Shown here in pieces: positions 1 through 62,830 of a stretch of 64,000 nucleotides of DNA. Source of the DNA: Dryococelus australis (lineage: Eukaryota; Arthropoda; Insecta; Phasmatodea; Phasmatidae). Under the pieces are notes generated by a model that did no database searches, had not been told where the DNA came from, and saw nothing but the letters and a program-made list of their open reading frames with translations. The position numbers and the translations under genes are program-made. Numbering within the stretch: position 1 is the stretch's first letter; every line of letters starts with the position of its first letter. The DNA is taken from positions 298,135,466 through 298,199,465 of the forward strand of contig CM057009.1 in NCBI GenBank assembly GCA_029891345.1. Direction: 5' to 3'.

Positions 1-735
1 ATCCAGCATGATTCCCACAAGCAAAAATTCGGGAGCAACCCAGCCAGGAATCAAAGTCTGATCACTACACCACTGCAACTCCTGGAGTGTTTTAGGGCAC
101 TGCAATATGACGGAAAGGTGCTGTTGGTAGTGAACCTAGCGGCCAGGTGGCATACTATAGCGTGGTGGGAAAATTTTAATTTTGCCAGTATAACTGTTGA
201 GTATTGTTTTGGAGCAATGATTATCTTATATTGAGGCCTGGAGGCTACCTGGATTTTATTATAAATTGGTGAGTTGATTTCCAGCAGCTGAGTTCTGAAT
301 GGTTGCTTGAAGGTGGTAAGGCTCCCACAACTCTGGTACTGTAGCAGGAGTCGAAATCTTTGTTGTGTGGTACTGCATGTACTGCAATGGGTTTGTCTTG
401 TAGGTTGTGGATGTGACCAGAAATGGCTTGTTTAGTGTCTACTCTGTGTCCATTCATTCTCTGCCTGAGTGTGTTGGTGGTGAGGCCAATGTATTCTGCA
501 TTACAATGTTGGCACTGTAACTCATAAAGTAAATTTTCTGTGGCACAGTAATAGTTACAGTTGCCTGGATCGGGTATGTATGGCGAGTGAGTCTGCTATT
601 GAAAGAAGTTGAGGGTTGGTTGGCAGCACAGGAGACAAAACGTGTGCTATTGCTGGGGTGGGATCCTCTGGGGGTGATAATTTGGTTGGAATTTGTAGTG
701 GGCTGCAGTTTTGGATGAACCAGTTTTCTTGCGGA
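1..735 (-). pseudogene. Penelope-like element 3' fragment (GIY-YIG endonuclease-like)
   Basis: Read on the minus strand, about 735 to 245 shows TSARKLVHPKL, then a frameshift, then CNYYCATENLLYELQCQHCN, AEYIGLTTNTLRQRMNGHR, and a downstream KPIAVHAVPHNKDFDS. The Y-I-G-L-T step followed by LRxRMNGHR is the GIY-YIG-type endonuclease domain that follows the reverse transcriptase in Penelope-like elements, with a preceding Cys-rich stretch. Stops and at least one frameshift make it non-functional, and it is cut by the window edge. An alternative is another retroelement carrying the same domain. It lies inside the SZT2 transcription unit, downstream of exon i. Confidence 0.7.
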
Positions 736-828
736 GGTTACATGGCATTTAGAAAACTAATATAGGCAGTTAGTTTGGAGATTACTTAAATGTTTATGTT
801 TTGAAATACTCAACAGGTGTTGCTGTAC

Positions 829-6000: not shown

Positions 6001-6105
6001 CTGCAACCAAGGGAAACAACACAATAATTACATTCTTCCAAACCTAACAAAACACATGAAGAAATGTCTGCACCAAAAATTATTATATAAAAAAATATCA
6101 CACAC

Positions 6106-6533
6106 TTGTGCCACAAAGTCCTCGCTACTTTTCAAGGATGACATTGCTGACACAGGTTGATGCTTGCGTGCATTCAGAGATGAAATAGATGAACTGCGCG
6201 ATACTTGTCCTGGGGAGTAATCATCTGTGTCAGATCGGCCGACACTAGTAGGAGTCAGCTTGCTCTGCCACCGCAACTTTTCATGAAGCCTCAGGTAGAA
6301 AACATTGTTTGATTTATCCTGGTACACAAACATATTTTTGCGATTGTTCACGGAGAAGCGGTTCAAAACAGTACACAATGCTTGTATTCCTCGTGACAAG
6401 TTGGGTTTCCCAGCTCCAGACTTGAGGCGAGGGTGCAGAAGAAACTGTCCTTCCCATACTGCATTGCATGCAAAGCAGCCTGGAGGGAATTCTTGCACAC
6501 CTTCAATGCTTAGTGCACTCAGTGAGTGTTCAT
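6106..6533 (-). CDS. SZT2: SZT2 exon g
   Basis: This is the largest exon here: 428 bp, two bases plus 142 codons. The acceptor is TTTGCAG|AT after a T-rich tract, and the donor is CAA|GTGTGT. It encodes EHSLSALSIEGVQEFPPGCFACNAVWEGQFLLHPRL, followed by NMFVYQDKSNNVFYLRLHEK and a Ser-rich tail (SRSSSISSLNARK). The VWxxxFxLHPRL and VYQDxxxNVFYLRL segments are the clearest SZT2 signatures in the window. The 105-bp intron after it is short and clean. Confidence 0.93.
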
Positions 6534-6627
6534 CTGCAAACAAAAAAAAAATAAACCAATCTATTACATTCACAGAACAGATCCTTTGCAAACTCAATTG
6601 AAAAATACATAATGACATTAAACTTAC

Positions 6628-6863
6628 CATCTAACATTTTTGAAGATGTCACCACGTTATTAGACACGGTGATTGGGTTTCCTGCAACCCAAATAAACTC
6701 GCTTGATTCTGCTTCAAGCAATGGATCACATGTGCGCGTATCATGAAGTTCTTGCAGCAGACGTGTTTGGTTAACTAATTTGCATAAGCCTCTAATGCAT
6801 GACACCACAGTCCTTTGAACCTCCAAATAGCTGACCACCAATATTGGCTGCAAAGCCTGCAAC
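6628..6863 (-). CDS. SZT2: SZT2 exon f
   Basis: The exon is 236 bp (1 + 78 codons + 1). The acceptor is ACTTGCAG|G and the donor ATG|GTAAGT. It encodes LQALQPILVVSYLEVQRTVV, a Cys-containing helix, LLQELHDTRTCDPLL and ESSEFIW. The LHDTR-C-LL and ESSE-x-W pattern is characteristic of conserved SZT2 core regions. The phase matches exons on both sides. The next exon follows after a 94-bp intron, one of only two short introns seen here. Confidence 0.9.
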
Positions 6864-7489
6864 CTGCAAGTATCAAACAATGATGTTAGGTATGAATTCA
6901 TTACTGAAAATAACCATATAGCATATATAATCTACCAAAGCATTAGATATGTGGCAAATTTTTATTAAGTATTTTTTGATAATGGAAAATGTTGATGTGT
7001 GATGGTCTAGGGACATGTAAACGTCAGTGCCTCAATAAAAGTTGTTTTTAGTACTGCACTAGATCAGGCGTACAGGTACAAAAGGGGTACAGACCATAAT
7101 GTGGTGGGGTGTGTAAGATTTGGTACTTCACTTCTATGGTGCCTTTATACAGCGTCGTATCGGTAAGCCGCCGGCTGGGCACAATGTTGAGTTGTGCTAA
7201 GATAGGTTTACGAGTGTGGGGTGTTGGCGGAGCTGCTGGCTTATCTCCCACTGCTGGTCAATAGGTGCTTGACGGTGTTGTTCCAAAGTCGGGTCTCCTG
7301 ACATGACTGGTTGTTGGCGACGTCTGCTGGATGGCTCAGTGGACAGGCATATTCGGCTGGTGGGATTCCGGCCCACTGGTGCTGGTTGGTGCAGCTGGAA
7401 CTTCATTGTCATTTATGATCTCGATGCCTTCTTAAAGTGGTAGACTTAGGTGAAGAATCTTGATGACTGGATGTACAGCAATGAAAAGC

Positions 7490-12546: not shown

Positions 12547-14001
12547 TGTCTACCAAAAGTAGGAGGGCCAATGCAGACCGCTGCTTGGCAGCAAGATGAG
12601 CTGTCCTTTGCTCTTCTTTCTTTGAGCCGTTCCTTACCTTAAATGGCATAGATGTGAGACTGTCGCTGAAAGGTACAGCCATGGACACGTAACAATCCCT
12701 ATATTTATGTTTTGCCAGCAGTGGCTGCTGGTATGAGCTTGGTGCTCCAGAAGGCCCCCTGCCACCGCCAGGCAGACCAGAAGTGTTGAGCCATATGGGC
12801 CGTCTTCCTGCCACTACTGGGTATGGGTCACAACCAAGGCCAGGCCGTACCACTCGAGCAAATACTCCAGCCAGCTCCTACGTGCTTCAGTAGGAATACA
12901 ACCCAAGCGTACTCTCTCTTCCTGGTTGGATGAGTTGTTAGTGGTTGGGGCTCTGCTGTTCTACACCTGGAGAATTAAAACAGGTGGTCCTCAAATGGTG
13001 AATGTATATGGGTGGTGGATTCCTGAAGGGAATCCCCATTCGGATCTAATTAGTATTCAATTGCCCGGTCTCGGTTGGCAGTGCACAATATGTACGGTTC
13101 ATAGCAGACATAGTGAATGACTCTTTATAAAGAATAACTCTCGGCTGAAAGAACAAAGCTGTATTTATTAAGATCATAATAAATACAGTGACATCTACTA
13201 TCTCCAAACCAAGCAGACAGTATGCCGGATGTAACCTAGCTGAACAGGTGTAGGTGACCTGGTTCTAAGCTAGTCAAGAACATATAAGAAGTCGATGGCT
13301 AAATATACTTAAGGTGATTAACTAACTTTGGGATGTCTAGACAAGACAATTAAATAAAGGGATCCTCTGCTCTAGTAGCAGGGAGTGTAATAGCTCCTAC
13401 CAGTAGCCGCCCCGGCTACTGTTCAAGAAGAAATCAGTAGCGAAGGATGTTGATGATGATAGCTGAAGCAGCTTCTGGTAGAAGAAGGCTATCTGCAATG
13501 AAGAGCCTCTGGTAAGTAGTAGTAGTTCACGTCAATGAAGCCTCTGGTCACTGCTGCAGCAGAAGAGCTTCTAGTGACTGCAATGGCTGTAGCCTCTGGT
13601 AAGCTGGTGAAGACTTGGGGTTCATCGAAGGTCCCAGCACAAGAAGTGGTGGAGTGAGCTTGAGGATCAGAAAGAACAACTCGCGAGCCCTGTCGCACAT
13701 GAACTCATATAGTCTGAAGGACAGGTGCGATGGCGGCCCACAAGGGGAGGTTTGACGTCCCTCTAGCGCGAGGCCGGAGTGGGGGTAACTACCCTCCGTC
13801 TCTCGCTCGGTTTTGTGCATGTTCGGTGGCGCTCGGCTGTGCCCTGAGGTGGCTGATGGCTTAAAGGCTCTCAGCGCAGGGGAGGGCAGCGTGTTCGCTC
13901 GTTTGCGCAACATCAGTTTCCACATGTACGGAAGCGCTGTCCAGGATACTACATTGCCAGGGTTCGACTCTCACTTGGGTGTAGTAGGTATACTGGCATC
14001 A
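12547..14001 (+). mobile_element. LTR-like direct repeat B (about 1.45 kb)
   Basis: It aligns along its whole length to 15237-16648. Both repeats begin TGTCTACC and end GGCATCA or GGCGTCA, so TG...CA ends are present. It contains an AATAAA hairpin at 13159-13188, a block rich in CTCTGGT/ACCAGAGGCT repeats (13440-13620), and GGTTCGACTCTC near the end. Plus orientation is chosen because leader and gag-like sequence follow on the plus strand, and the same LTR-end/leader/gag order recurs at 53.6-51.8 kb on the minus strand. An LTR of a Gypsy-type element is the simplest reading. Confidence 0.7.
13159..13188. repeat. AATAAA hairpin in LTR B
   Basis: Arms CTGTATTTATTA and TAATAAATACAG are 12 bp, with loop AGATCA. 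The AATAAA poly(A) signal is present on both strands. See the matching hairpins at 15859, 59198, 8136 and 37445. Confidence 0.85.
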
Positions 14002-15236: not shown

Positions 15237-15240
15237 TGTC
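14967..15240. repeat. Tandem duplication of about 170 bp
   Basis: 14967-15070 and 15137-15240 are about 80% alike by eye, sharing GATGCTCCT and GGTCCGGGTAGTTGGAGG blocks. The duplication abuts LTR A and is not seen in the 52-kb relative. Confidence 0.7.
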
Positions 15241-16648
15241 TACCGGAAGTAGGTGGGGCCAATGCAGACCGCAGCTCTGCAGCAAGATGAGCTGCACTTT
15301 GCTCTTCTCTCATTGAGCCGTGCCTTACCTTAAATTGCATAGATGTGAAACCGCCACTGAACGGTATAGATTATGAACCGCGGACGTGAAACAATCCCTA
15401 TATTAGTGTTCTGCCAGCAGTGGCTGCCGGTACAGATCGGTGCTCCAGAAGGCCCCCTGCCACCGGCAGGCAGACCAGAAGCGTTGAACGGTATGGGATG
15501 CCTTACTGCCACTACTGGGTACGGGTTGCAACCAAGGCCAGGCCGTAACACTCAAGCAAATACTCCCGCCAGCACCTACGTGCTCCAGTAGAAATACAAC
15601 CCAAGTGTACTGTCTTTCCCCGGTTGGATAAATTGCTAGTGGTTGGGGCTCTGCTGTTCTATCCCCGGAGGTATAGAACAGGTGGCCATCGAATGGTGTA
15701 TGTATATGGCTGGTGGATTCCTATAGGGGATCCCCAGTCCAGGTCTAATTTGTATTCAACTGCCCGGTCTCTGTCGGCAGTGCACAACGTATACGGATCC
15801 TAGTAGACGTATTGGATGACTCTCTAGAAAGAATAATTCTCAGCTAAAAGAACACAGTTGTATTTATTAAGAACGTAATAAATACAGTGACATCTACTAT
15901 CTCCTAACCAAGCAGAAGGTATGCTGGAAGTAACCTACACTGAACAAATGTAAGTGACCTGGTTCTAAGCTAGTCAAGAATGTATAAGAATTCAATGGCT
16001 TAATATACTTAACGTGATTAACTAACTTTGAGATGTGTAGACGAGACGATTAAATAAAATGATCCACTGCTCTAGTAGCAGGGAGTATAACTGCCTCTAC
16101 CAGCAAGTAGGAGTGGCTACTGTTCAAGAAGGAATCAGTAGTGAAGGGTGTTGATAATGGTAGTAGAAGAAGCTTCTGGTAGAAGAAGGCTATCTGCAGT
16201 GAAGAGCCTCTGGTAAGTGGTAGTAGTTGATGTCAATGAAGCCTCTGGTCAATGCTGCTGCAGAAGAGCTTCTGGTGACAGAAATGGTTGCAGCCTCTGG
16301 TAAGCTGCTCAAGACATGGACGTCGTCGAAGGTCCCAACACAAGAAGTGGTGGAGCAAACTCGAGGGCTCAGAAAGAATAACTCGTGAGCCCTGCCGCAC
16401 ACGGACTTATGTAGGCCGAAGTGGGCATAGCTACCCTCCATCTGTCTCTCACGGCTGTGCCCTGAGGTGGCTGACGGCTTGTTGGCTCTCAGCGCGGGGG
16501 AGGGGAGGGCAGCGTGCTCGCTGGCTTGCGAATCATCAGTTTCCACGCGTTCGGAAGCGCTGTCCAGGGTTGTGGCGATCAGCAACGTCCTTGTACTACG
16601 TTGTCAGGGTTTTACTTTCACTTGGGTGTACTAGGTATACTGGCGTCA
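15237..16648 (+). mobile_element. LTR-like direct repeat A (about 1.41 kb)
   Basis: Second copy of the repeat at 12547-14001, offset about 2.65-2.69 kb, with the same order of landmarks: TGTCTACC start, hairpin 15859-15886, CTCTGGT block (16170-16320), GGGTTTTACTTTCACTTGGGTG end. The two copies differ at many sites, so the insertion is old. A 10-bp stretch (TAAGAGATGA) after the end is shared by both copies, so the true border may extend slightly further. No target-site duplication was found. Confidence 0.7.
15859..15886. repeat. AATAAA hairpin in LTR A
   Basis: Arms TGTATTTATTA and TAATAAATACA are 11 bp, with loop AGAACG. It is the same structure as at 13159-13188, with a different loop. 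Confidence 0.85.
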
Positions 16649-19075: not shown

Positions 19076-20550
19076 GTTTCACCACTAACAGTTCCAAAAT
19101 GTAATGGCCAAATTTTTTCTAAAGTGGAAAAAAGGTACAAAATTAACATAATATTAACTTTTGGTTTTTATAGATTTGATTGATATGATAATTTATAATA
19201 ACACTGAGAAATATATCTTTACAGTAATTTTAGATGTATGCAAAAACCGCAAATTAGCAACACAAAAAAAATGTTAATAGAAAATTTCATTTTTCAAAAA
19301 CTGAAGCAAATCACTTATTTTGTATACAATCATTTAAGTAATGAATAGCAACTAGCTTTACACATTATAGAGTTAAAGATATAATGCTGTCATCACTGCT
19401 AAAAAACAATAATCAAATATGACTTATTTGGTAATTTTTGTTGTGTTGCGTTGTTATTTTTCAACTTCTTTGAAATGAAGCACAGTATTTACTTGTGTAT
19501 AATGCGCACCATGATGTTTTCAACAAATTCCACGCAAAAACATTTTCTTTACTAAAAGGTCTTCTTAGTAAGTGTGTAACAAATTATTATTTTATTTTAA
19601 ATTAATTTGTGGTGATTGCAATATATTTGGAAAATATTTATTTAAATAACTCCAGGGGGATGGGGGGGGGGGGGGGGGGGGGCTTAAAGCGAAAACATTG
19701 TGGCATTCTATAAGGTCGCGGTAACCTTATGGTGGTTAAAAGAAGAATGTTAAAGACTGAGGTGGGCGGCTGGCTTTCTTTTTTTTTTTTTGCTTCTTTT
19801 ATGCAGTGCCAGTCATTAAAAGAGAAACGTCACCTGCCATGGGTGGCCTGCTTTCTTTCTTTGCTTCTTTTAGGCAGTGACATGCTGGTCTTTTCTTGTT
19901 GTGTTGATTTTTTTTTTTTTTGCCGGGCTGGTCCTTTTCTTTGCCGTTGTGGAATGTGACATTACCCTTCTCTAAAAAAAAAACATGTTGTCTCTTCCCT
20001 TCTCCCCCCAGGTAGCAATCTTCTAAGATTCTTCCACTACATTTCCCTTTAAACATCACTGGACAGTTTAAGACTAGATAGCTTATAACTGGGCAGTTTA
20101 CGCCTACCACTCTACCATTCCGCACCCCAGAAAGGTTTTCATTTATTTTGGGGGAAAAAGGAAATACTTAAGTTTGTTTCAAAGTTCGTTAATGATGTTA
20201 CTTTCTAGCACATTTTTGAACCAAACACGAACTCGTGTAAATTTTTTGAACCGAACTAGAACTGATATTTTTACATGGCAATAAATTTTGAACCAAACCC
20301 AAACTATAAAGTGAAGTTCGGGTTCGGTTCGAAATTTGTACGTTCAACCTTATATCTAATATTTATTAATACAATTTACTCACTATAATGGGGGGGAGGA
20401 CAGAAACTAATAAAATATCACTGTTCAGTATCAGTTTACAGAAAGTTTGATTTGGGTGGTTCCAATATTTAGAATAGTGGCTGGTTTTTAATATTGGGTA
20501 TCGATACCAGCTCATCACTAACATAAATTTACTTAGAACATATAGAAGGA
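19075..20550. other. AT-rich intron with homopolymers and hAT-like fragments
   Basis: It includes a poly-G run at 19661-19682 and a short duplicated T-rich module at 19770-19875 (CTTTCTTT-TTGCTTCTTTT-GCAGTG twice). GAACCGAAC/GTTCGGTTC inverted words at 20225-20340 and GGTATCGATACC at 20505 are typical of hAT-derived MITE ends. No coding sequence is supported. Confidence 0.5.
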
Positions 20551-20638
20551 TATCAATTCAAGTACTCACAGTGTAGTAGTTGTGGAAAGACACACACACA
20601 CAAAGATGGACAACATATTTTTTATGCAGTTACACAAT

Positions 20639-20672
20639 TGCAATGTTTCGCTAGCTACGCCAGCTCCATCAG
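20639..20672 (-). ncRNA. Candidate hammerhead ribozyme, minus strand (mutated core)
   Basis: The reverse complement reads CTGATGG, A, GCTGGC-GTA-GCTAGC, GAAA, then CATTGCAATTG. Stem II keeps pairing through one G-U. The last core base is G instead of A, expected to weaken or abolish cleavage. It is the inverted partner of the motif at 20684. Confidence 0.45.
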
Positions 20673-20683
20673 GTGATCACCGC

Positions 20684-20720
20684 CTGATGAAGCTGGCATA
20701 GCCAGCGAAATATTGCAATC
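20684..20720 (+). ncRNA. Candidate hammerhead ribozyme, plus strand
   Basis: CTGATGA (20684-20690) is followed by a single A, then GCTGGC-ATA-GCCAGC as a perfect 6-bp stem II, then GAAA (20707-20710). A self-complementary ATTGCAAT lies where stem III should be. Hammerhead motifs with short stem III are known in Penelope-like elements and often act as dimers. The extra A between the core and stem II departs from the classical consensus, so activity is uncertain. Confidence 0.5.
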
Positions 20721-20804
20721 ACGCAACCATGTAAAAAATGTGTCGACCTTCTTTGTGTGGGTGTGTGCCTGTCAACAAGTATTCCACTGTGAGTACTTGA
20801 ATTC

Positions 20805-21690
20805 CTACCCTTTTATATATTTTTTGTAGCCTAGTGGCCTACTTGCAATTTCATCTAATAAATTTACTTAGCATACACTTATCTTTCTTTATTTAACCCA
20901 CAATCTTATACCAATTAATATTCGTACCAGCACTATATTATGCATAAATTCAAGTTTATGTGACATTATTGATGTTTATATGTACTAGGTAAAATTAACC
21001 AATTTAATGAGTGCGTAAAATATTGAACATACCTGTTCAAAACCTTCATACATAATCTCCCTTATAACAAAATAACCATATTTTGGTCCCATGATATTTT
21101 CTATATAAAGGTTTTATAGTACTAAACTCCATATTTATATTAAATTTTGTTAAGTAGTGGTCAAACACTTAAACACATTGTCATCAAGAGCAACATAGCA
21201 TTTTAAATTATACTTACTACATTCAAGTAATTTCTTCCAATTAAAGTAAGTATAAGCTAGCATTTTTGGTTTCTATGTGTTTTCATAGTTACAAATTTAT
21301 GTTATTTTGTGGTGTAATTGTACTGTGTCAACTGAAAATGGAAAGGTATTGCATAGCCTTGAATTATCACACATCATTACAGTGAAGTGCTTTCTGGTTT
21401 GTATTCCACTTTATTTACAGTCGCATTCCATGTAATGCATAATTTTGTATGTAGGAATTGTTATTTCCAATACAAAATTATGATTTTTGGACCAAATTAT
21501 GAGCTCCCAAAATTTATTAGTATTTCTGTTGCTCTGCTAATAACATTCACAATGTGTAGCAAATAATGAACCATTGCATAAGCTGTACAACAATATGTCT
21601 TTATGTTTAACAATTTGCTGCATGGCCATGAAGATACTATTTTCACTATAACATTGAAAAATGTACATCACAGAAAATTTCAAGGGCAAT
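20805..21690. other. AT-rich intron, no gene seen
   Basis: Contains the Penelope-like tail TAGCCTAGTGGCCTACTTGCA at about 20828, also seen at 46330. The rest is unremarkable. Confidence 0.5.
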
Positions 21691-44249: not shown

Positions 44250-46180
44250 ATATTAGGTTATGAGTCAGGGCCTACAGTTATTTTGCAAACAGTTTTCTCC
44301 TTTTTAGTTTTTTTTTGTTGGGTTAACTTTGTGTGCGAGCGGTTATTTTTCACTTGTCACTTTTACAATCTTGCCTTTGCAATATTCAACAAAGTTAGTG
44401 GCGGCTACACCTCCCTCCATAGTATGCACACCATATTTAAACTACAACTGCCTATCACAGCACTATAGTCAATAATGTACAGGTTACAGCACTGGATCCG
44501 GAAAATACAAAAACTTTGAACTAAAACCTGCTAAATGTCAACAAACACAACACACATAATACTTACTAAGATTTTCTTGTTTGAAAGTTGGTTGTAGTGT
44601 CTTGCTTTAGATGTCAAGATGGCGGTGCTGTAAGTGGCAAACATTTTTTAATTGCGATAAATATGTTTTATGTAGCATTTGGCTTTAAGACTGTTATCAT
44701 GTTTTGTTCCTTGTTAACTACTTTGCAGAATTTATCAATGCCTATATGGTCAAAACTCAATAACACAAATTGGAAGGAATCATAATTTTTGGCACTTCGT
44801 AATAATAAATATTATACTAGAAATTTAAAGCAAAAAAAGAGTGAAATACGTACTTACTAACAGATTAGTATATTTGCTGTATGCTTTTTACTGTTTACCC
44901 AGCACAATACCAGAGATAACGTCCGTAGTTTGTAAAATGCAGTGATTTTGATGAAACTTTTTATACAAATTTACGTAATTTACTATAGGTGCATACATAA
45001 AAATTGAAAGCACACAAGTTTGTATGTTGCTACGTTGTGGTTTTTTTATCCAAGGTCAGGAAATTTAATACACAATATATTTATTTCCGTAGGATATCCA
45101 ATTTTTTGCAGTTTAATTTCATTTAAGTTCATAGTTTTCGTGGCAATTTAATTTAATTTTTCGATGCTTCTTGATGTAAATTTTATTTCACTTCCTGGTT
45201 CTTGTATAACGTAACTTTGAATTCTCGTGCAATATAGCAATTTCATATTCCATTTCTTGTGTAACATAGTCTAGTTTCGCATGTCAATTCTTATTTAATA
45301 TAATTTTATAAAACTTTTTTACTATCATAGTAAGTACAGTGTTGTGTTTGTATTTCCAAATAACTGCTGTAAATATCAACTTGATCACAGATTAACTGGT
45401 AACATTATCAGATATCTCTACTCACAAAAATTCTCACTTTGGTATAACACAATGGCATCGTAATTGATTATAGTCACAAGTGTGACCATTAAAGCACTCA
45501 CATGTCCACTATTCATACAGTTTTGTTCTGAAACCTATTCATTTTTGCTCTGACAGTTCGCTTACATTTCGGTGATAACTATTATTCGTCTGGTGAATTT
45601 CATATCAATTGACTAAAAATACATTTATTTGAAGCCCTGTGTGATTACATAATAACTGTATTTTGTGTGAAACAAACAGTTTAACATTATAAAGCCTATT
45701 TAATTTCACAGGACCATAAACAGGAGCAGTGTGTTAAACGGGATTATATTAATAAGGTTTGACTGTAATGTTAAAATTATGTTTCACCATTTCTAGTGAT
45801 GGAGATCACGCTCGCGCAGCACTTGTAGCTACATCAGTAGAACGTGAAGGTACCAGCTGTGAATTATCATACAAGGAAATGGTAATTACTGTTTTAGAGA
45901 GCAAAGTATGTGAGCAAACACTTCAAAGTATTGGTTATAAAGAACAAATATTATTTACACTTTTGTGATCATTCTTCAAATATCGTTTTTTGTTACAATG
46001 TATTACATAAGAACACATAAAGACTCAAAAATTTACTTCAAAAACAAGAACTGATGTAACCACTTCTTAGGCATGTGTTTGTAATAATGATCTTGATAAA
46101 CACTTAATTTCATTAAGTATTTATTATGTATGAAATGTAAAAATGCAGTTGTAATTAAAGTCGAATAAAATATACAAATG
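44250..46180. other. 3' flank of the BEL element and AT-rich intron
   Basis: 44250-44470 may be part of a 3' LTR but no copy was found 5' of gag. From 44.5 kb onward the sequence is AT-rich with no supported gene. Confidence 0.4.
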
Positions 46181-46190
46181 GACAGAACTA

Positions 46191-46355
46191 AAGTACTCAC
46201 AGTGTAGTCTTGTCAACAAGCACACACAGACAAAGAAGAATGACACATTTTTCATGTGGATGTGGAATCGCAATGTTTCGCTGGTTTCACCAGGCGGAAA
46301 GTAGTGGGGCACTTTGACATATTTTTGGTAGCCTAGCAGCCTACTTGTAACCTAA
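46191..46355 (-). repeat. Half-copy of the hammerhead-bearing repeat, core deleted
   Basis: AAGTACTCACAGTGTAGTCTTGTCAACAAGCACACACAGAC through GCAATGTTTCGCTGG matches half of the fold-back at 20555. The complement has CTGGTGAAACCAGCGAAACATTGC: the GAAA side is kept, but CTGATGA and most of stem II are collapsed. The tail TAGCCTAGCAGCCTACTTG is shared with 20828. Confidence 0.7.
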
Positions 46356-47619: not shown

Positions 47620-50080
47620 TATCTTAGATTTAATTTCATAACACTACCAAAAAAATGCCATCAGCCAGAATATTTCCGCATAATTATTCATTGATAGCCA
47701 TAAAATACCAGAAAATCTAAACAGACCAACAAAAAAAAACAAAGAACCACAACACAACCCTTTATTATTTTGTTGCCCGACTGTTTTCTACGGAAATTAG
47801 CAAGTAGGATGACTCTTCACAAAATATTATGGCTGCAGACACAAAATTGTTATAGTGGTTCAATAAAATAAATTTTTTTATACTAATTTCTTTTCTTCTT
47901 TTTCTTGTTAAATCACAGTCGTGTTAATAGATATTTGTTCAGTGAGCTTTTCTAGACTGAAGAATCCTCTGGGATCCCAACCAAAACTTTTATAGTCAAG
48001 GATATTTTAATTGTTGTTTAGTAGTGTCCTTGCTTTATGTGAGTAGACTAGTAAGAAAAAAAGCGAGAAAGATAAGATTTCATCTGAAAATGGCATGATA
48101 TCTATGGCCATTTACTAACTTCCAAGAATTTGTCACAGGATGTAAGAATTAAAATTTACTTCTGCCTTTGTTTTATTATTGTTATTACTCACGATATTGG
48201 TGCTTGAAATGTTGATTGAGCATGCTCCGCATGGAAGATAAAGTGTGTGTTGTTTGAACAATACTTGCTATGAGGATAATTGAACAAATTAAACATTACT
48301 TTGGACATACCTATTGAAGAGCTATGTCACCAAGGGAAACATATGGAGGATGGGACAAAAAACATGCACCAGAATAATCCAAGACTAGCTGTTGTCAACA
48401 CGTATTTAAAACATTACAATAATCCCACAAGGAATTCTGTCATGTGTTCTACCAAACTAAAGAAAACAATACAAGTAACAAACAAACAAGCAACGAAGAC
48501 AAAATATTATATATAAATACACACAAAACTCCAGAGGACCCACTGAGGAGAACACAGATAAACACTGAGGCAAAGACTGTGTGTGTACTTCTGTAATGTT
48601 TTCATTGTGTCGTCAGGATTTGAGCTTAGGATACATACTTGTCTTTCTCTCAGTGTTTGTCTATGTTGTCCTTGTTGGGTCATTTGGAATTTTCTGTGTG
48701 TATTTGTATATACTGTACTGTCATTATCGCTCATTCATTTGTTACTCACCCTCTTTGTTTCATTTGGTTTGGTAGAACTCTTTGATTGAATCCTTTGTGG
48801 GATTTTTAAAAATGTTTTAAACTATCTGTCAACAGCCATCAGTCTTGGCTTGTTCTTGTTTATGTTTTTAATGCCATACTTTGCATTTTCCTTGGCAACA
48901 TAGCTCTGCAATGGCATATGTATTATGCAATTTTTCGTTTGATAACATGTGGGTAATAAAAGCCAGCTCTTGGAAAACCACTGTGATTAAAAATGTTTCT
49001 CTTATGTTGTTTTAAATTTAATACGTCCCCAAAGTTAATCATTACATATAACAAAAAATTGCATGGAAACTGTGGGCTTCATTATTATGATGAAGGTAAC
49101 CATATAACACTTTTTAACCTGACAAAGTTTTGGACCATATTGTGGAATGATTTGCACCTTCAGGTAACAGACACAACTTGCAGCCTGAGAAACATTATCT
49201 GATGGTACTTCCTTAGCAGACCTTAGATGGATATCAATGAAACCTTAATTTAGAACCTGTGAATACACTCAGAAAATTTAAACATTAAGATGATGTGACA
49301 TCACATTTGACATTCTAATACCTCATCTGAAGACACTGTAGCTCTGCCATCTGCCATGCTCTGTGTTTTTGTATGTCTGCTGAAAAACCTGCAGCCTAGG
49401 GACAAAATTACGAATTTCTGTGTTTTCTAATATGTTTTACTATGTGGATACATCTTTCTACTCTATGTTACTCATTATATAACAAAATATTTTATCACCT
49501 TCCATTGTTTCATTATACATTTTCTTCATAACAATACAAACTAACTGACACATTTTTAAGTCAAATGTGGAACACATCTAGATGTGAAGCAGCGCAGCAC
49601 TGTGGCAGGATTACTGTCAGCACACTGGACCACTACAATATTTTCAAATTTACAGACTAATAGTGAGAGATGATACAAGCATTCTGAGGAGGTGGTAATG
49701 AACCACATTCAACACATATAATAAGCAAAACCACCTGCAGAGATTTACTGCTCACCCTCATTACAGTCACCATCTTCATCTTCCTAAACCCAACTTCCTT
49801 TCCCACTGTTTCAGAAAACTGTGCGTATGTAATTGATTTATGACCAGCTAGAGAAAACATGCAACCAGTAATCATAATCACAAATTTACTAGCTGTGGAA
49901 AAAACCTGAGCAGAGGAACGAACCTTTGAAACATTATGAACACACACGTACACAATTGTACAGCAACTGCAAAAAATAATAATTATTATTATGGTACAAG
50001 CCTTTCACTTATTTAACCAAAGATGATACATTCACTTTTTTATTGCACAAGACAGTAATAGTGTATGGACCATATCAAGT
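47620..50080. other. SZT2 intron a/b, no gene seen
   Basis: AT-rich. ORFs at 48280-48790 and 49657-49953 have no recognisable content. The intron has GT at 50213-50212 and AG at 47608-47607, length 2607 bp. Confidence 0.5.
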
Positions 50081-56557: not shown

Positions 56558-56580
56558 AAATAAAAATGGTTGTTATCTAT

Positions 56581-56792
56581 AGTCCGTTCACGACTGGAAC
56601 AGACTTATGAAAATCAATCATTGAAAAAACCCCTTAGCCATTAGCTGCATGCATAGCTAGTAAAAAAAGTGGCAGGTGCGGGAACTGTACCCGCACCTGC
56701 CACTTTTTTTACTAGCTATGCATGCAGCTAATGGCTAGGGTGTTTTTTTCAAAGATTGATTTTCATAAGTCTGTTCCAGTCGTGAATGGACT
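56581..56792. repeat. 212-bp near-perfect palindrome
   Basis: Arms of about 102 bp meet at a 7-nt loop (56683-56689, AACTGTA). Ends are AGTCCGTTCACGACTGG and the complement of AGTCCATTCACGACTGG, with only about five differences by eye. It lies between the start of the transposase ORF and an upstream open frame. It may be an inserted fold-back MITE; no clear target duplication was found. Confidence 0.92.
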
Positions 56793-57056
56793 TTATTTTC
56801 AATCATACCCTTCCCACTCTCAACTTTTGGCACTTCCCCGTTGTTGAGCACAGTAATCTCACGTTGTTGTAGCATGTTGCAGCTGATGTGTCCGAGATTG
56901 GAACTATCAAGTAATCAATGCGAAATATCAAGTGGGAATTGCAGTGTCAATGAGTTGTTGTCTGATGACATCTTCGAAGACGATAGTTGAAAACCTACGA
57001 GAAGAAAAAGGGCAATAGAACGAAAGTAACCCCAGATATATGGTAAACAACTGCAT

Positions 57057-61587: not shown

Positions 61588-62830
61588 TTAGAAGGGGAGG
61601 GGGGGAGACATATGTTCAATTGCTGCAGCTACTTTGTCGGGGTCGGTTGACATGCCTTGAGGTGTGATGATGTGACCTAAAACCTTAATTGTTTGTTGGG
61701 CGAATGAGCACTTTTGGGCATTGACCTTAACATTAAACTGGCACAAGAGTTGGAAGACATTATGAATATTGGTAACGTGTTCCTCGAATGTACTACCCAA
61801 TATAAAAATATTGTCAATGAAGGCGATTGCTGCTGTCCATCTCAGGGGGCATAAAGGTTTATTAATAAACATTTGAAACTATTGAGGGCTGATGCTTAGT
61901 ACCATTGACATTCTTCGGTACTCAATTAAACCAACGTAATTGATGTTAAAAGCCAATTTGTGATGATCCTGAGGTTGAGTGGGTATGCTATAGAAACCAG
62001 AAAATAAGTCAAGGCTAGTGATGAAAGGGGAATGTCGCAAGGCATTAAAAATATCCTCAGTACAAGGTAGCAGATATTGCACCCTAGTAAGATGTTGATT
62101 GAGCTTTCTGAAATTTATCAAAAATCGAATGCCGTCACTCTTTTAGGAAATAACAAGATTAAGGGCAGAATATGGGGAATAAGCTTCTTGTATAGTGCCT
62201 CATTAACCATGTCATTTATCTGAATTAAAAGATTGTCACACACCATGGGAATGATTTGGTACGGATGAGTAGCAATGGGTTTGTCTGTGTCTAAGTCCAG
62301 CTTAATTTCAAAGTTCCGTGCCTCTGTAAGCTCTAGTATTGAATTCGCAAAACGGTCATTATAGTGCTCTATAATATTGTGAATGGCTTATTTCTGGGCC
62401 AGAGCGAGGTTATCATTAACCGAAGGACCCTCAGGGGGTTGAGTTTCAAAGGCTTTGAGAGCATTACAAAAATGGGTAATAGACAAGTATTCGGGTGTGT
62501 GTGCGCCATCAGACACAATTAGAATTTCAGTGAATTTAATTTCATCATGGGCGTGGATAAAGAGAGTATTATACTTTAAAGTAGTGATTACGTCGTATTT
62601 ATTAAGGAAATCCACACCCTAAATGATATCTTGCTGGACGTTGGCCAGAATTAAAAAGTTCTATGGGTAAGTACGAACATGGATATTTAAGTGGATGGTA
62701 TTATAAAACATAGGAGGGGGCAAAATAGACGTGGCTGCTACTAGTGTAATAGTAGCCGTGAGAGGAGAAAGGGGCTGATCTGATAGAATGGTGCTGGCCA
62801 CACAGCTACAGGAACATCTTGTGTCTACTA
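61588..62830 (-). pseudogene. Gypsy-like protease and reverse transcriptase remnant
   Basis: Protease near 62830: LVDTRCSCSCVAS, where the usual D-T/S-G is D-T-R. Then GVDFLNKYDVITTLKYNTLF. RT: MINFRKLNQHLTRVQYLLPC, ITSLDLFSGFYSIPTQPQDHHKLAF (first Asp), and AFIDNIFILGSTFEEHVTNI, where the YxDD box is F-I-D-N. KVNAQKCSFAQQTIKVLGHII is the thumb start. The stops between 62380 and 61880 break the frame. RNase H and integrase are missing; the copy ends at about 61600 in a G-rich tract. Confidence 0.85.

What the first reader, a model, noticed from the sequence alone, without database searches (positions are those of the whole stretch)
20555..20804. Two inverted hammerhead-like ribozyme cores in one fold-back repeat
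Seen: CTGATGA, GCTGGC-ATA-GCCAGC and GAAA at 20684-20710, and a mirror copy on the minus strand (CTGATGG, G-U in stem II, GAAA). Both are followed by an ATTGCAAT that can pair with itself. Known: Penelope-like elements carry hammerhead motifs with short stem III that work as dimers. Inferred: the fold-back joins two such termini, and the plus copy could still cleave. The extra A before stem II is unusual.
Basis: partly seen in the sequence, partly recalled or inferred. Interest (0 to 1): 0.8.

Follow-up and report, generated by a model that had tools for sequence, protein, structure and literature searches.

The report
Penelope retroelement fold-back carrying hammerhead ribozymes
The repeat is a short insertion of a Penelope-type jumping gene in which two copies of its hammerhead-ribozyme-bearing end were joined head to head; the kind is known, but its sister copies mostly show a one-tail pattern that hints at how these elements insert.

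Summary
The fold-back (20537-20857, flanked by 14-bp repeats) is an insertion of a Penelope-like element (PLE): two head-to-head copies of the PLE terminal repeat (pLTR), one with a 31-bp tail. In longer copies from the same 3.4-Gb genome (L113, L115, L116) the arm directly follows PLE endonuclease sequence, and a fragment of that PLE lies at 89-781 of this window. The core is a PLE-type hammerhead. The extra A is the rule: 70 of 77 arms and an unrelated PLE (L041). Rfam finds no hammerhead, but scores L041's at only 16.7 bits, so that is weak evidence. The plus copy keeps the full core, stem II and palindromic stem III, as do 7 of 77 arms; its stem I is eroded and the fold-back hides it. Cleavage is unproven. 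In 34 of 36 two-arm loci exactly one arm bears the tail, suggesting two separate starts of reverse transcription. Some junctions recur between loci, so copying of a ready-made fold-back remains possible for part of the family.

The parts
20523..20536 (.). left target-site duplication ATAAATTTACTTAG
   Evidence: 14/14 identical to 20858-20871; 4 of 4000 random pairs as good
20537..20673 (-). left arm: PLE pLTR copy without tail, sense on minus strand, 5' end about 1 nt before the hammerhead core
20646..20672 (-). minus-strand hammerhead core CTGATGG-A-stem II-GAAA (A9 changed to G)
   Evidence: CM R1 hit 20675-20625, 37.3 bits, E 2.8e-7
20674..20682 (.). head-to-head junction region (the right arm overlaps its right part)
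   Evidence: its junction groups with no other among 26 anchorable fold-backs
20677..20826 (+). right arm: PLE pLTR copy, sense on plus strand, 5' end about 4-7 nt before the hammerhead core
20684..20714 (+). plus-strand hammerhead: CUGAUGA, extra A, 6-bp stem II, GAAA, palindromic AUAU (stem III), U17; predicted cleavage 20714/20715
   Evidence: CM R1 hit 20677-20731, 58.7 bits, E 7.4e-13
20827..20857 (+). 31-bp tail, on the right arm only (motif GTAGCCTAGTGGCCTACTTG at 20826-20845)
20858..20871 (.). right target-site duplication
46169..46354 (-). second member: one arm on the minus strand (hammerhead degenerate, CTGGTGA) plus the tailed 3' end of a truncated second arm
   Evidence: (repeats 46153-46168/46355-46370, 15/16; 20 of 4000 random pairs as good)
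89..781 (-). PLE fragment of the same family: GIY-YIG endonuclease (ORF 248-595) and 3' region, ending where the hammerhead arm starts in other copies
   Evidence: 75-78% identity over about 690 bp to L113/L115/L116; Pfam GIY-YIG E 2.7e-4, 21.6 bits against a cut-off of 22.6

Best explanation
The fold-back is a dead, very short PLE insertion. SHOWN by comparison: its two arms are copies of a PLE terminal repeat that, in longer copies, lies immediately 3' of GIY-YIG endonuclease sequence and carries a PLE-type hammerhead with an extra A after A9; the arms are head to head, one ends at the plain 3' end and the other runs on through a 31-bp tail, and the whole is flanked by an AT-rich target-site duplication. 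INFERRED: the PLE enzyme cut both strands of an AT-rich site and began reverse transcription twice on element RNA, once at each of its two start sites (with and without tail). Both cDNAs ran to near the hammerhead, where many templates seem to end, and the two ends were joined. The hammerhead is a passenger here. Its ancestral role would be processing of tandem PLE transcripts, as proposed for PLEs. The plus copy could in principle cleave as a dimer through its AUAU stem III, but it is probably weak because stem I has decayed and the left arm pairs with it.
For: Own-genome search: 80 matches among 40 scored of 2326 candidates. Of 39 loci fetched plus the two window copies, 36 of 41 have two inverted arms. 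L113, L115 and L116 run upstream into the PLE endonuclease/3' region that is also at window 89-781; an RT fragment with FIDDI lies upstream in L113. TSD score at least 9 in 16 of 33 fold-backs, against a 99th percentile of 8 and a maximum of 10 in 256 flank swaps. Tail on exactly one arm in 34 of 36, binomial p 9.7e-9 if loci are independent; in a second set, 14 of 15 new adjacent pairs. Hammerhead: independent PLE L041 with RVT_1 and GIY-YIG matches has the same core, extra A and ACGTT, with a 4-bp plus distal stem I. Stem II has double changes in 4 of 6 pairs when L041 is aligned with 8 hand-picked arms. A model built from these, without window sequences, hits both arms and the second copy (E 7.4e-13, 2.8e-7, 4.8e-7; rough calibration) and nothing else in 64 kb at E up to 10. 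PLE anatomy from PMC3846280 and PMC11167929.
Against: No intact PLE ORF of this family was found or sought beyond the fetched loci. GIY-YIG in the window is 21.6 bits, just under Pfam's cut-off of 22.6. 17 of 33 fold-backs show no clear TSD. Stem I of the family is only 2-3 proximal pairs, and 5 of 9 sequences lack the third pair. Double changes in stem II there come from L041 alone. In 45 of 440 stem II cells of the 77 arms the pair is broken, with 3 double changes, one of them an alignment artefact, so the genomic copies decay neutrally. By junction structure the 26 anchorable fold-backs fall into 17 groups; 14 of the 26 are in 5 shared groups, which an inherited fold-back would explain in part. 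Arms of one element are slightly more alike than arms of different elements (0.836 against 0.809, 0 of 2000 permutations), which self-copying or inheritance would also give.
Confidence: 0.87

Rival explanations
1. The fold-back arose by self-priming: one cDNA folded back and copied itself, as proposed for PLE inverted repeats, rather than by two separate starts of reverse transcription.
For: Head-to-head arms with palindromic junctions were read this way in PMC3846280. Arms of one element are slightly more similar than arms of different elements.
Against: A copied arm should repeat the tail; 34 of 36 two-arm loci have it on one side only, and 14 of 15 in a second set.
Confidence: 0.2
2. Ready-made fold-backs (a PLE-derived master hairpin, SINE-like) are copied as units, at least in part of the family.
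For: Recurrent junctions at loci with different flanking repeats: L109/L124/L129 share one 26-nt centre and have the tail on the same side; so do L106/L107 and L098/L112 with short centres. Many two-arm copies of similar size.
Against: The 26 anchorable fold-backs still make 17 groups, and in the second set the arm starts of a pair range widely, for example -142/-152, -355/-385, +21/-69, -131/+86. Short shared centres can recur by chance joining at CGCC/GGCG. ARAGORN finds no tRNA-like gene.
Confidence: 0.15
3. A DNA transposon remnant (MITE) with long terminal inverted repeats.
For: Long inverted arms, no ORF of 120 aa or more inside.
Against: Unequal ends (tail on one side), direct repeats of variable length, arms joined to PLE coding sequence in other loci.
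Confidence: 0.02
4. The hammerhead resemblance is a chance match in a hairpin-rich repeat.
For: Rfam gives no hammerhead in the window; a half-core with stem II is expected 0.02 times per shuffled window, which many looks could produce.
Against: Same core, extra A and ACGT(T/C)G in an unrelated PLE with a different stem II; 37 matches of two such patterns in the own genome against 0 for the reversed patterns, nearly all of them this family; the model hits only this family's copies in the window.
Confidence: 0.04

Closest known systems
Penelope-like elements with inverted pLTRs and tail (Adineta vaga Pen2a and others, PMC3846280; passages and Discussion read)
   Different: Here the arms of many copies meet within about 20 nt of the hammerhead with no coding sequence between them, and tails are counted over many copies. 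The main text of that paper does not mention hammerheads (0 occurrences)
PLE PAc (Poseidon of Anolis carolinensis, PMC11167929; main-text section read)
   Same: Hammerhead at the pLTR-ORF junction; reverse transcription starts at two sites that bound the tail, most often 111-118 bp into the ORF; AT-rich targets; both target strands cut and extended
   Different: PAc showed no difference in start site between the two strands in vitro; in the genomic copies here one arm mostly ends at one start and the other arm at the other
Small PLE hammerhead variants that act as dimers (Lunse et al. 2017; seen only as reference-list entries and as described in PMC6466107 passages; rest recalled)
   Same: Diminished stem III with a palindromic sequence
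   Different: Whether their consensus has the extra A after A9 could not be checked in print
Animal retrozymes (PMC7229834; passages read)
   Same: Type I hammerhead in small non-autonomous retroelements of about 170-400 nt
   Different: Retrozymes are direct tandem repeats with circular RNAs; here the units are inverted and joined head to head

Membership tests
Penelope-like element (terminal-repeat insertion) | Terminal repeat adjoins an RT plus GIY-YIG coding region | tested here: met
   Arm directly follows EN/3' region in L113, L115, L116; RT match to L041 in L113, E 2e-4; window fragment 248-595 GIY-YIG E 2.7e-4, just below Pfam's cut-off. All decayed; the fold-back itself has no coding part
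Penelope-like element (terminal-repeat insertion) | Inverted pLTRs with optional tail of 30-40 bp on one | tested here: met
   34 of 36 loci with exactly one tail
Penelope-like element (terminal-repeat insertion) | Short target-site duplication at AT-rich sites | tested here: met
   14/14 for this copy; 16 of 33 above null
Penelope-like element (terminal-repeat insertion) | Mobilised by PLE protein | not testable with these tools
   No expression or insertion data
Hammerhead ribozyme (PLE type I, diminished stem III) | CUGANGA, GAAA, A15.1-U16.1, H17 | tested here: met
   All present in plus copy; 25 of 77 arms keep all four. Minus copy fails at A9
Hammerhead ribozyme (PLE type I, diminished stem III) | Stem II | tested here: met
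   6 pairs in both window arms; double changes in 4 of 6 pairs with L041
Hammerhead ribozyme (PLE type I, diminished stem III) | Stem I | tested here: inconclusive
   Plus copy: 2 proximal pairs and an optional 5-bp distal pairing with the junction sequence; forced fold costs 1.9 kcal/mol
Hammerhead ribozyme (Rfam) | Score at or above gathering | tested here: not met
   No hit in window; control L041 hammerhead also only 16.7 against 52 bits
Hammerhead ribozyme (PLE type I, diminished stem III) | Self-cleavage | not testable with these tools
   Needs in-vitro transcription
MITE / TIR DNA transposon | Fixed-length TSD and matching ends | tested here: not met
   Direct repeats of variable length; ends differ by the tail
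SINE | RNA polymerase III promoter of tRNA type | tested here: not met
   ARAGORN finds no gene; an A-box-like TAGCCTAGTGG in the tail is at the wrong end (consensus recalled, not searched)

The most novel reading that the evidence does not exclude
The one-tail pattern reflects an obligate asymmetry in PLE integration: in each insertion one target strand primes reverse transcription at the outer start site and the other strand at the inner one, possibly by the two subunits of a PLE dimer. Head-to-head fold-backs would then be the regular product of double-ended priming on short templates that begin near the hammerhead, not accidents of self-priming.
Probability: 0.4. Interest if true: 0.7.

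Novelty: new member of a known kind. Interest (0 to 1): 0.52.

Why it matters
How PLEs integrate is an open question; PAc in vitro shows two start sites and use of both target strands. A genome with many short head-to-head insertions gives a natural record of the reaction: paired start sites, varied junctions, and template 5' ends near the hammerhead but not at its cut site. It also shows that this PLE hammerhead type, in this family and in L041, goes unseen by the Rfam models at their curated cut-offs.

Tried and rejected
Rfam at gathering and relaxed thresholds: no hammerhead; at the fold-back only miRNA-type hairpin models and one weak DUF3577 match. The L041 control later showed this to be weak evidence. 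A search for a stem I with stem III anywhere after GAAA found none for the plus copy; I then took the register of L041. MITE and SINE readings were rejected as in the rivals. Scans of viral contigs for family motifs found nothing; for the general core they gave 9 loci, none with more than one stem II pair. The search for related loci with the L041 protein: no relative. Idea that hammerhead cleavage makes the template 5' ends: of 63 arms in the second set 25 start at -31..+3 around C3 and 3 at +28..+38, none exactly at +31; one arm of the first set (L110) starts at +32; not supported.

Corrections of my own counts. The first tail threshold used a null that contained tails and gave only 23 of 36 with one tail; redone with a flank-only null and a cut in the gap between scores 7 and 10. 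A first count of 35 of 36 distinct centres was inflated, because it included 12 nt of decaying arm on each side; redone by junction it is 17 groups among 26 anchorable of 33 fold-backs, 5 groups shared (grouping threshold rough). I therefore raised the inherited-fold-back rival from 0.07 to 0.15 and lowered the novel case from 0.45 to 0.40 and the main reading from 0.88 to 0.87. The shared groups also mean that the 36 loci are not all independent. The parser mislabelled L135 (both tails false); I read it by hand as one-tail. The 14 of 15 count leaves out L094, L102, L111 and L117, already in the first set, and keeps L132 (both tails) as the exception; its query contained the tail, so only the partner arm is a test, and tails were called there by where the match ends. 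The 77-arm table includes a few arms that do not reach the hammerhead (for example the second arm of the window's second member), scored as lacking it.

Selection: the first set is the 40 best-scored of 2326 candidates for a query with short arms, so it favours short fold-backs; the second is the 40 best of 2915 for a query downstream of the cut. Some TSD calls lie some bases away from the mapped end; the null used the same rule.

Full report
WHAT IS THERE. The plus strand reads CTGATGA-A-GCTGGC-ATA-GCCAGC-GAAA at 20684-20710, and the minus strand carries the same with CTGATGG, GTA and one G-U pair at 20672-20646. The two lie in arms that are about 80% complementary and fold into one hairpin of -151.6 kcal/mol, z -18.4. 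A window-wide comparison gave a second member at 46169-46354 with a 15/16 flanking repeat.

RFAM. No hammerhead is found at gathering or at E up to 5 in the window, or at E up to 10 in 20400-20950. A control decided how much that is worth. I scanned genome contigs for the core with the extra A (CTGATGAAG, gap, CGAAACGTTG): 75 loci. Of the 84 matches there and in viral contigs, 4 have a stem II of five pairs counted from its base: L013 and L050, where I see no stem I, and L039 and L041. L039 and L041 are pieces of 3018 and 8000 bases of one 11018-base contig, LJHE01000041.1, filed under Epulopiscium, and each carries the same hammerhead: a 5-bp stem II of different sequence, a 4-bp stem I and a distal helix. 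In L041 it lies between two identical 765-aa frames with RVT_1 (29.2 bits, just under the cut-off of 29.6) and GIY-YIG (28.2, above 22.6): a tandem Penelope-like element, presumably from a eukaryote. Rfam scores this hammerhead at 16.7 bits against a gathering score of 52. So a negative Rfam result says little here.

THE FAMILY. When the own genome (3.4 Gb) could be searched, the fold-back gave 80 matches among 40 scored of 2326 candidates. I fetched the other 39 loci, 32 listed as fold-backs and 7 as single-arm hits. With the two window copies, 36 of 41 loci have two head-to-head arms, two of them (L116, L117) with longer centres. Upstream of the arm in L113, L115 and L116 comes the 3' region of a GIY-YIG endonuclease frame. 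The same region, at 75-78% identity over about 690 bp, is present at 89-781 of this window on the minus strand, and the match ends where the hammerhead begins in those loci. An RT fragment (FIDDI) lies upstream in L113. The arm is therefore the terminal repeat (pLTR) of a PLE, and the window holds another fragment of that PLE family.

THE HAMMERHEAD. The commonest sequence of 77 arms is CTGATGA-A-GCTGGC-TTA-GCCAGC-GAAACGTC-G, with T for the last C in others. The extra base is A in 70 of 77. The reference list of PMC6155905 names a study of an extra nucleotide in a viroid hammerhead core; I saw the title only. In the register of L041, A15.1 to U16.1 reads ACGT, which is self-complementary and so suits a dimer; H17 is U or C and the cut falls before G. 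In the window plus copy this is AUAU (20710-20713), U20714, then G20715; in the minus copy ACAU, not palindromic, and A9 is G. A complete set of core positions is kept in 25 of 77 arms, with at least 5 stem II pairs in 21, and with 6 pairs plus a palindromic stem III in 7, the window plus copy among them. In an alignment of 8 well-kept arms, picked by hand, with L041, stem II has a change on both sides in 4 of 6 pairs and 96.3% of cells paired; the covariation score is 0.386 against 0.203 in shuffles, 0 of 500 as high; L041 supplies the double changes in stem II. Two pattern searches of the own genome gave 19 and 18 matches, and 0 each for the reversed pattern. By eye nearly all are this family, but one (C17:290706238) has a different stem II, GGCAG/CTGCC, and one (L183) has a paired G-C to A-T change. 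A covariance model made without window letters finds exactly three places in the window: the plus arm (E 7.4e-13), the minus arm (2.8e-7) and the second copy (4.8e-7). E-values from that short calibration are rough.

COULD THE PLUS COPY CUT? Its core is intact. Stem I has only two proximal pairs plus a possible GUGAU/AUCAC pairing with the junction, and the forced hammerhead fold of 20672-20731 lies 1.9 kcal/mol above the local optimum (0.6 for L041, 3.3 for L115). A transcript of the whole element would pair this stretch with the left arm. I regard cleavage of the fold-back transcript as unlikely and cleavage of the isolated plus arm as open. In PAc the hammerhead cut only with protein present, and its mutants still inserted (PMC11167929).

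HOW THE FOLD-BACK FORMED. Three counts bear on this. (1) In 34 of 36 two-arm loci exactly one arm continues into the tail; L093 has two and L128 none; p 9.7e-9 if the loci are independent. In a second, differently sampled set 14 of 15 new adjacent pairs agree. (2) Junctions: 26 of 33 short fold-backs could be anchored at both cores and fall into 17 groups; 5 groups are shared by 2-3 loci, 14 loci in all. L109, L124 and L129 share a 26-nt centre and the side of the tail, although their flanking sequences differ. So most junctions differ, but some recur, either because the same join was made again or because a fold-back was copied whole. The p-value above is therefore too small, though the varied junctions of the second set are not touched by this. 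(3) In the second set 25 of 63 arm starts fall between -31 and +3 around the first core base, 21 of 63 are spread over -600 to -32, and none is exactly at the hammerhead cut. TSD scores exceed the 99th percentile of swapped flanks in 16 of 33 fold-backs. PMC11167929 reports two start sites of reverse transcription bounding the tail and extension of both target strands. PMC3846280 reports head-to-head inverted pLTRs with a 31-bp tail on one of them and explains inverted structures by self-priming. The one-tail count fits two separate starts better than a copied cDNA. The small excess of likeness between arms of one element (0.836 against 0.809, 0 of 2000 permutations) fits either.

NOVELTY. PLE hammerheads, inverted pLTRs and tails are known. 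I saw no paper that counts tails over many short head-to-head copies in the listings; the library is partial, and the two main papers on PLE hammerheads were not read: one is not held, the other was not looked up. Hence a new member of a known kind, with a mechanistic pattern worth testing.

Noticed in passing
window 56578-56795: 219-bp near-perfect palindrome (93%), flagged by Rfam MIR5048 at 76 bits, below its cut-off of 160; it gave no match to the PLE arms.
   Followed up: partly
window 48313-48912: 600-bp imperfect inverted repeat, 70%.
   Followed up: no
window 12547-13719 and 15237-16421: Direct repeat of about 1.2 kb, 84.6% identical, with diverged relatives between 58.6 and 59.7 kb.
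   Followed up: no
L039 and L041 / contig LJHE01000041.1: A contig filed as a bacterial single-cell genome (Epulopiscium) is a tandem Penelope-like element, presumably eukaryotic contamination.
   Followed up: yes
L109, L124, L129; L106, L107; L098, L112: Fold-backs at different sites that share a junction and the side of the tail: copied whole, or joined again at the same place.
   Followed up: partly
window 61591-62142, minus: Decayed reverse transcriptase in broken frames, Ty3/gypsy-like by eye.
   Followed up: no
window 6031-6931, minus: Open stretches that look by eye like exons of the conserved animal gene SZT2; not tested.
   Followed up: no
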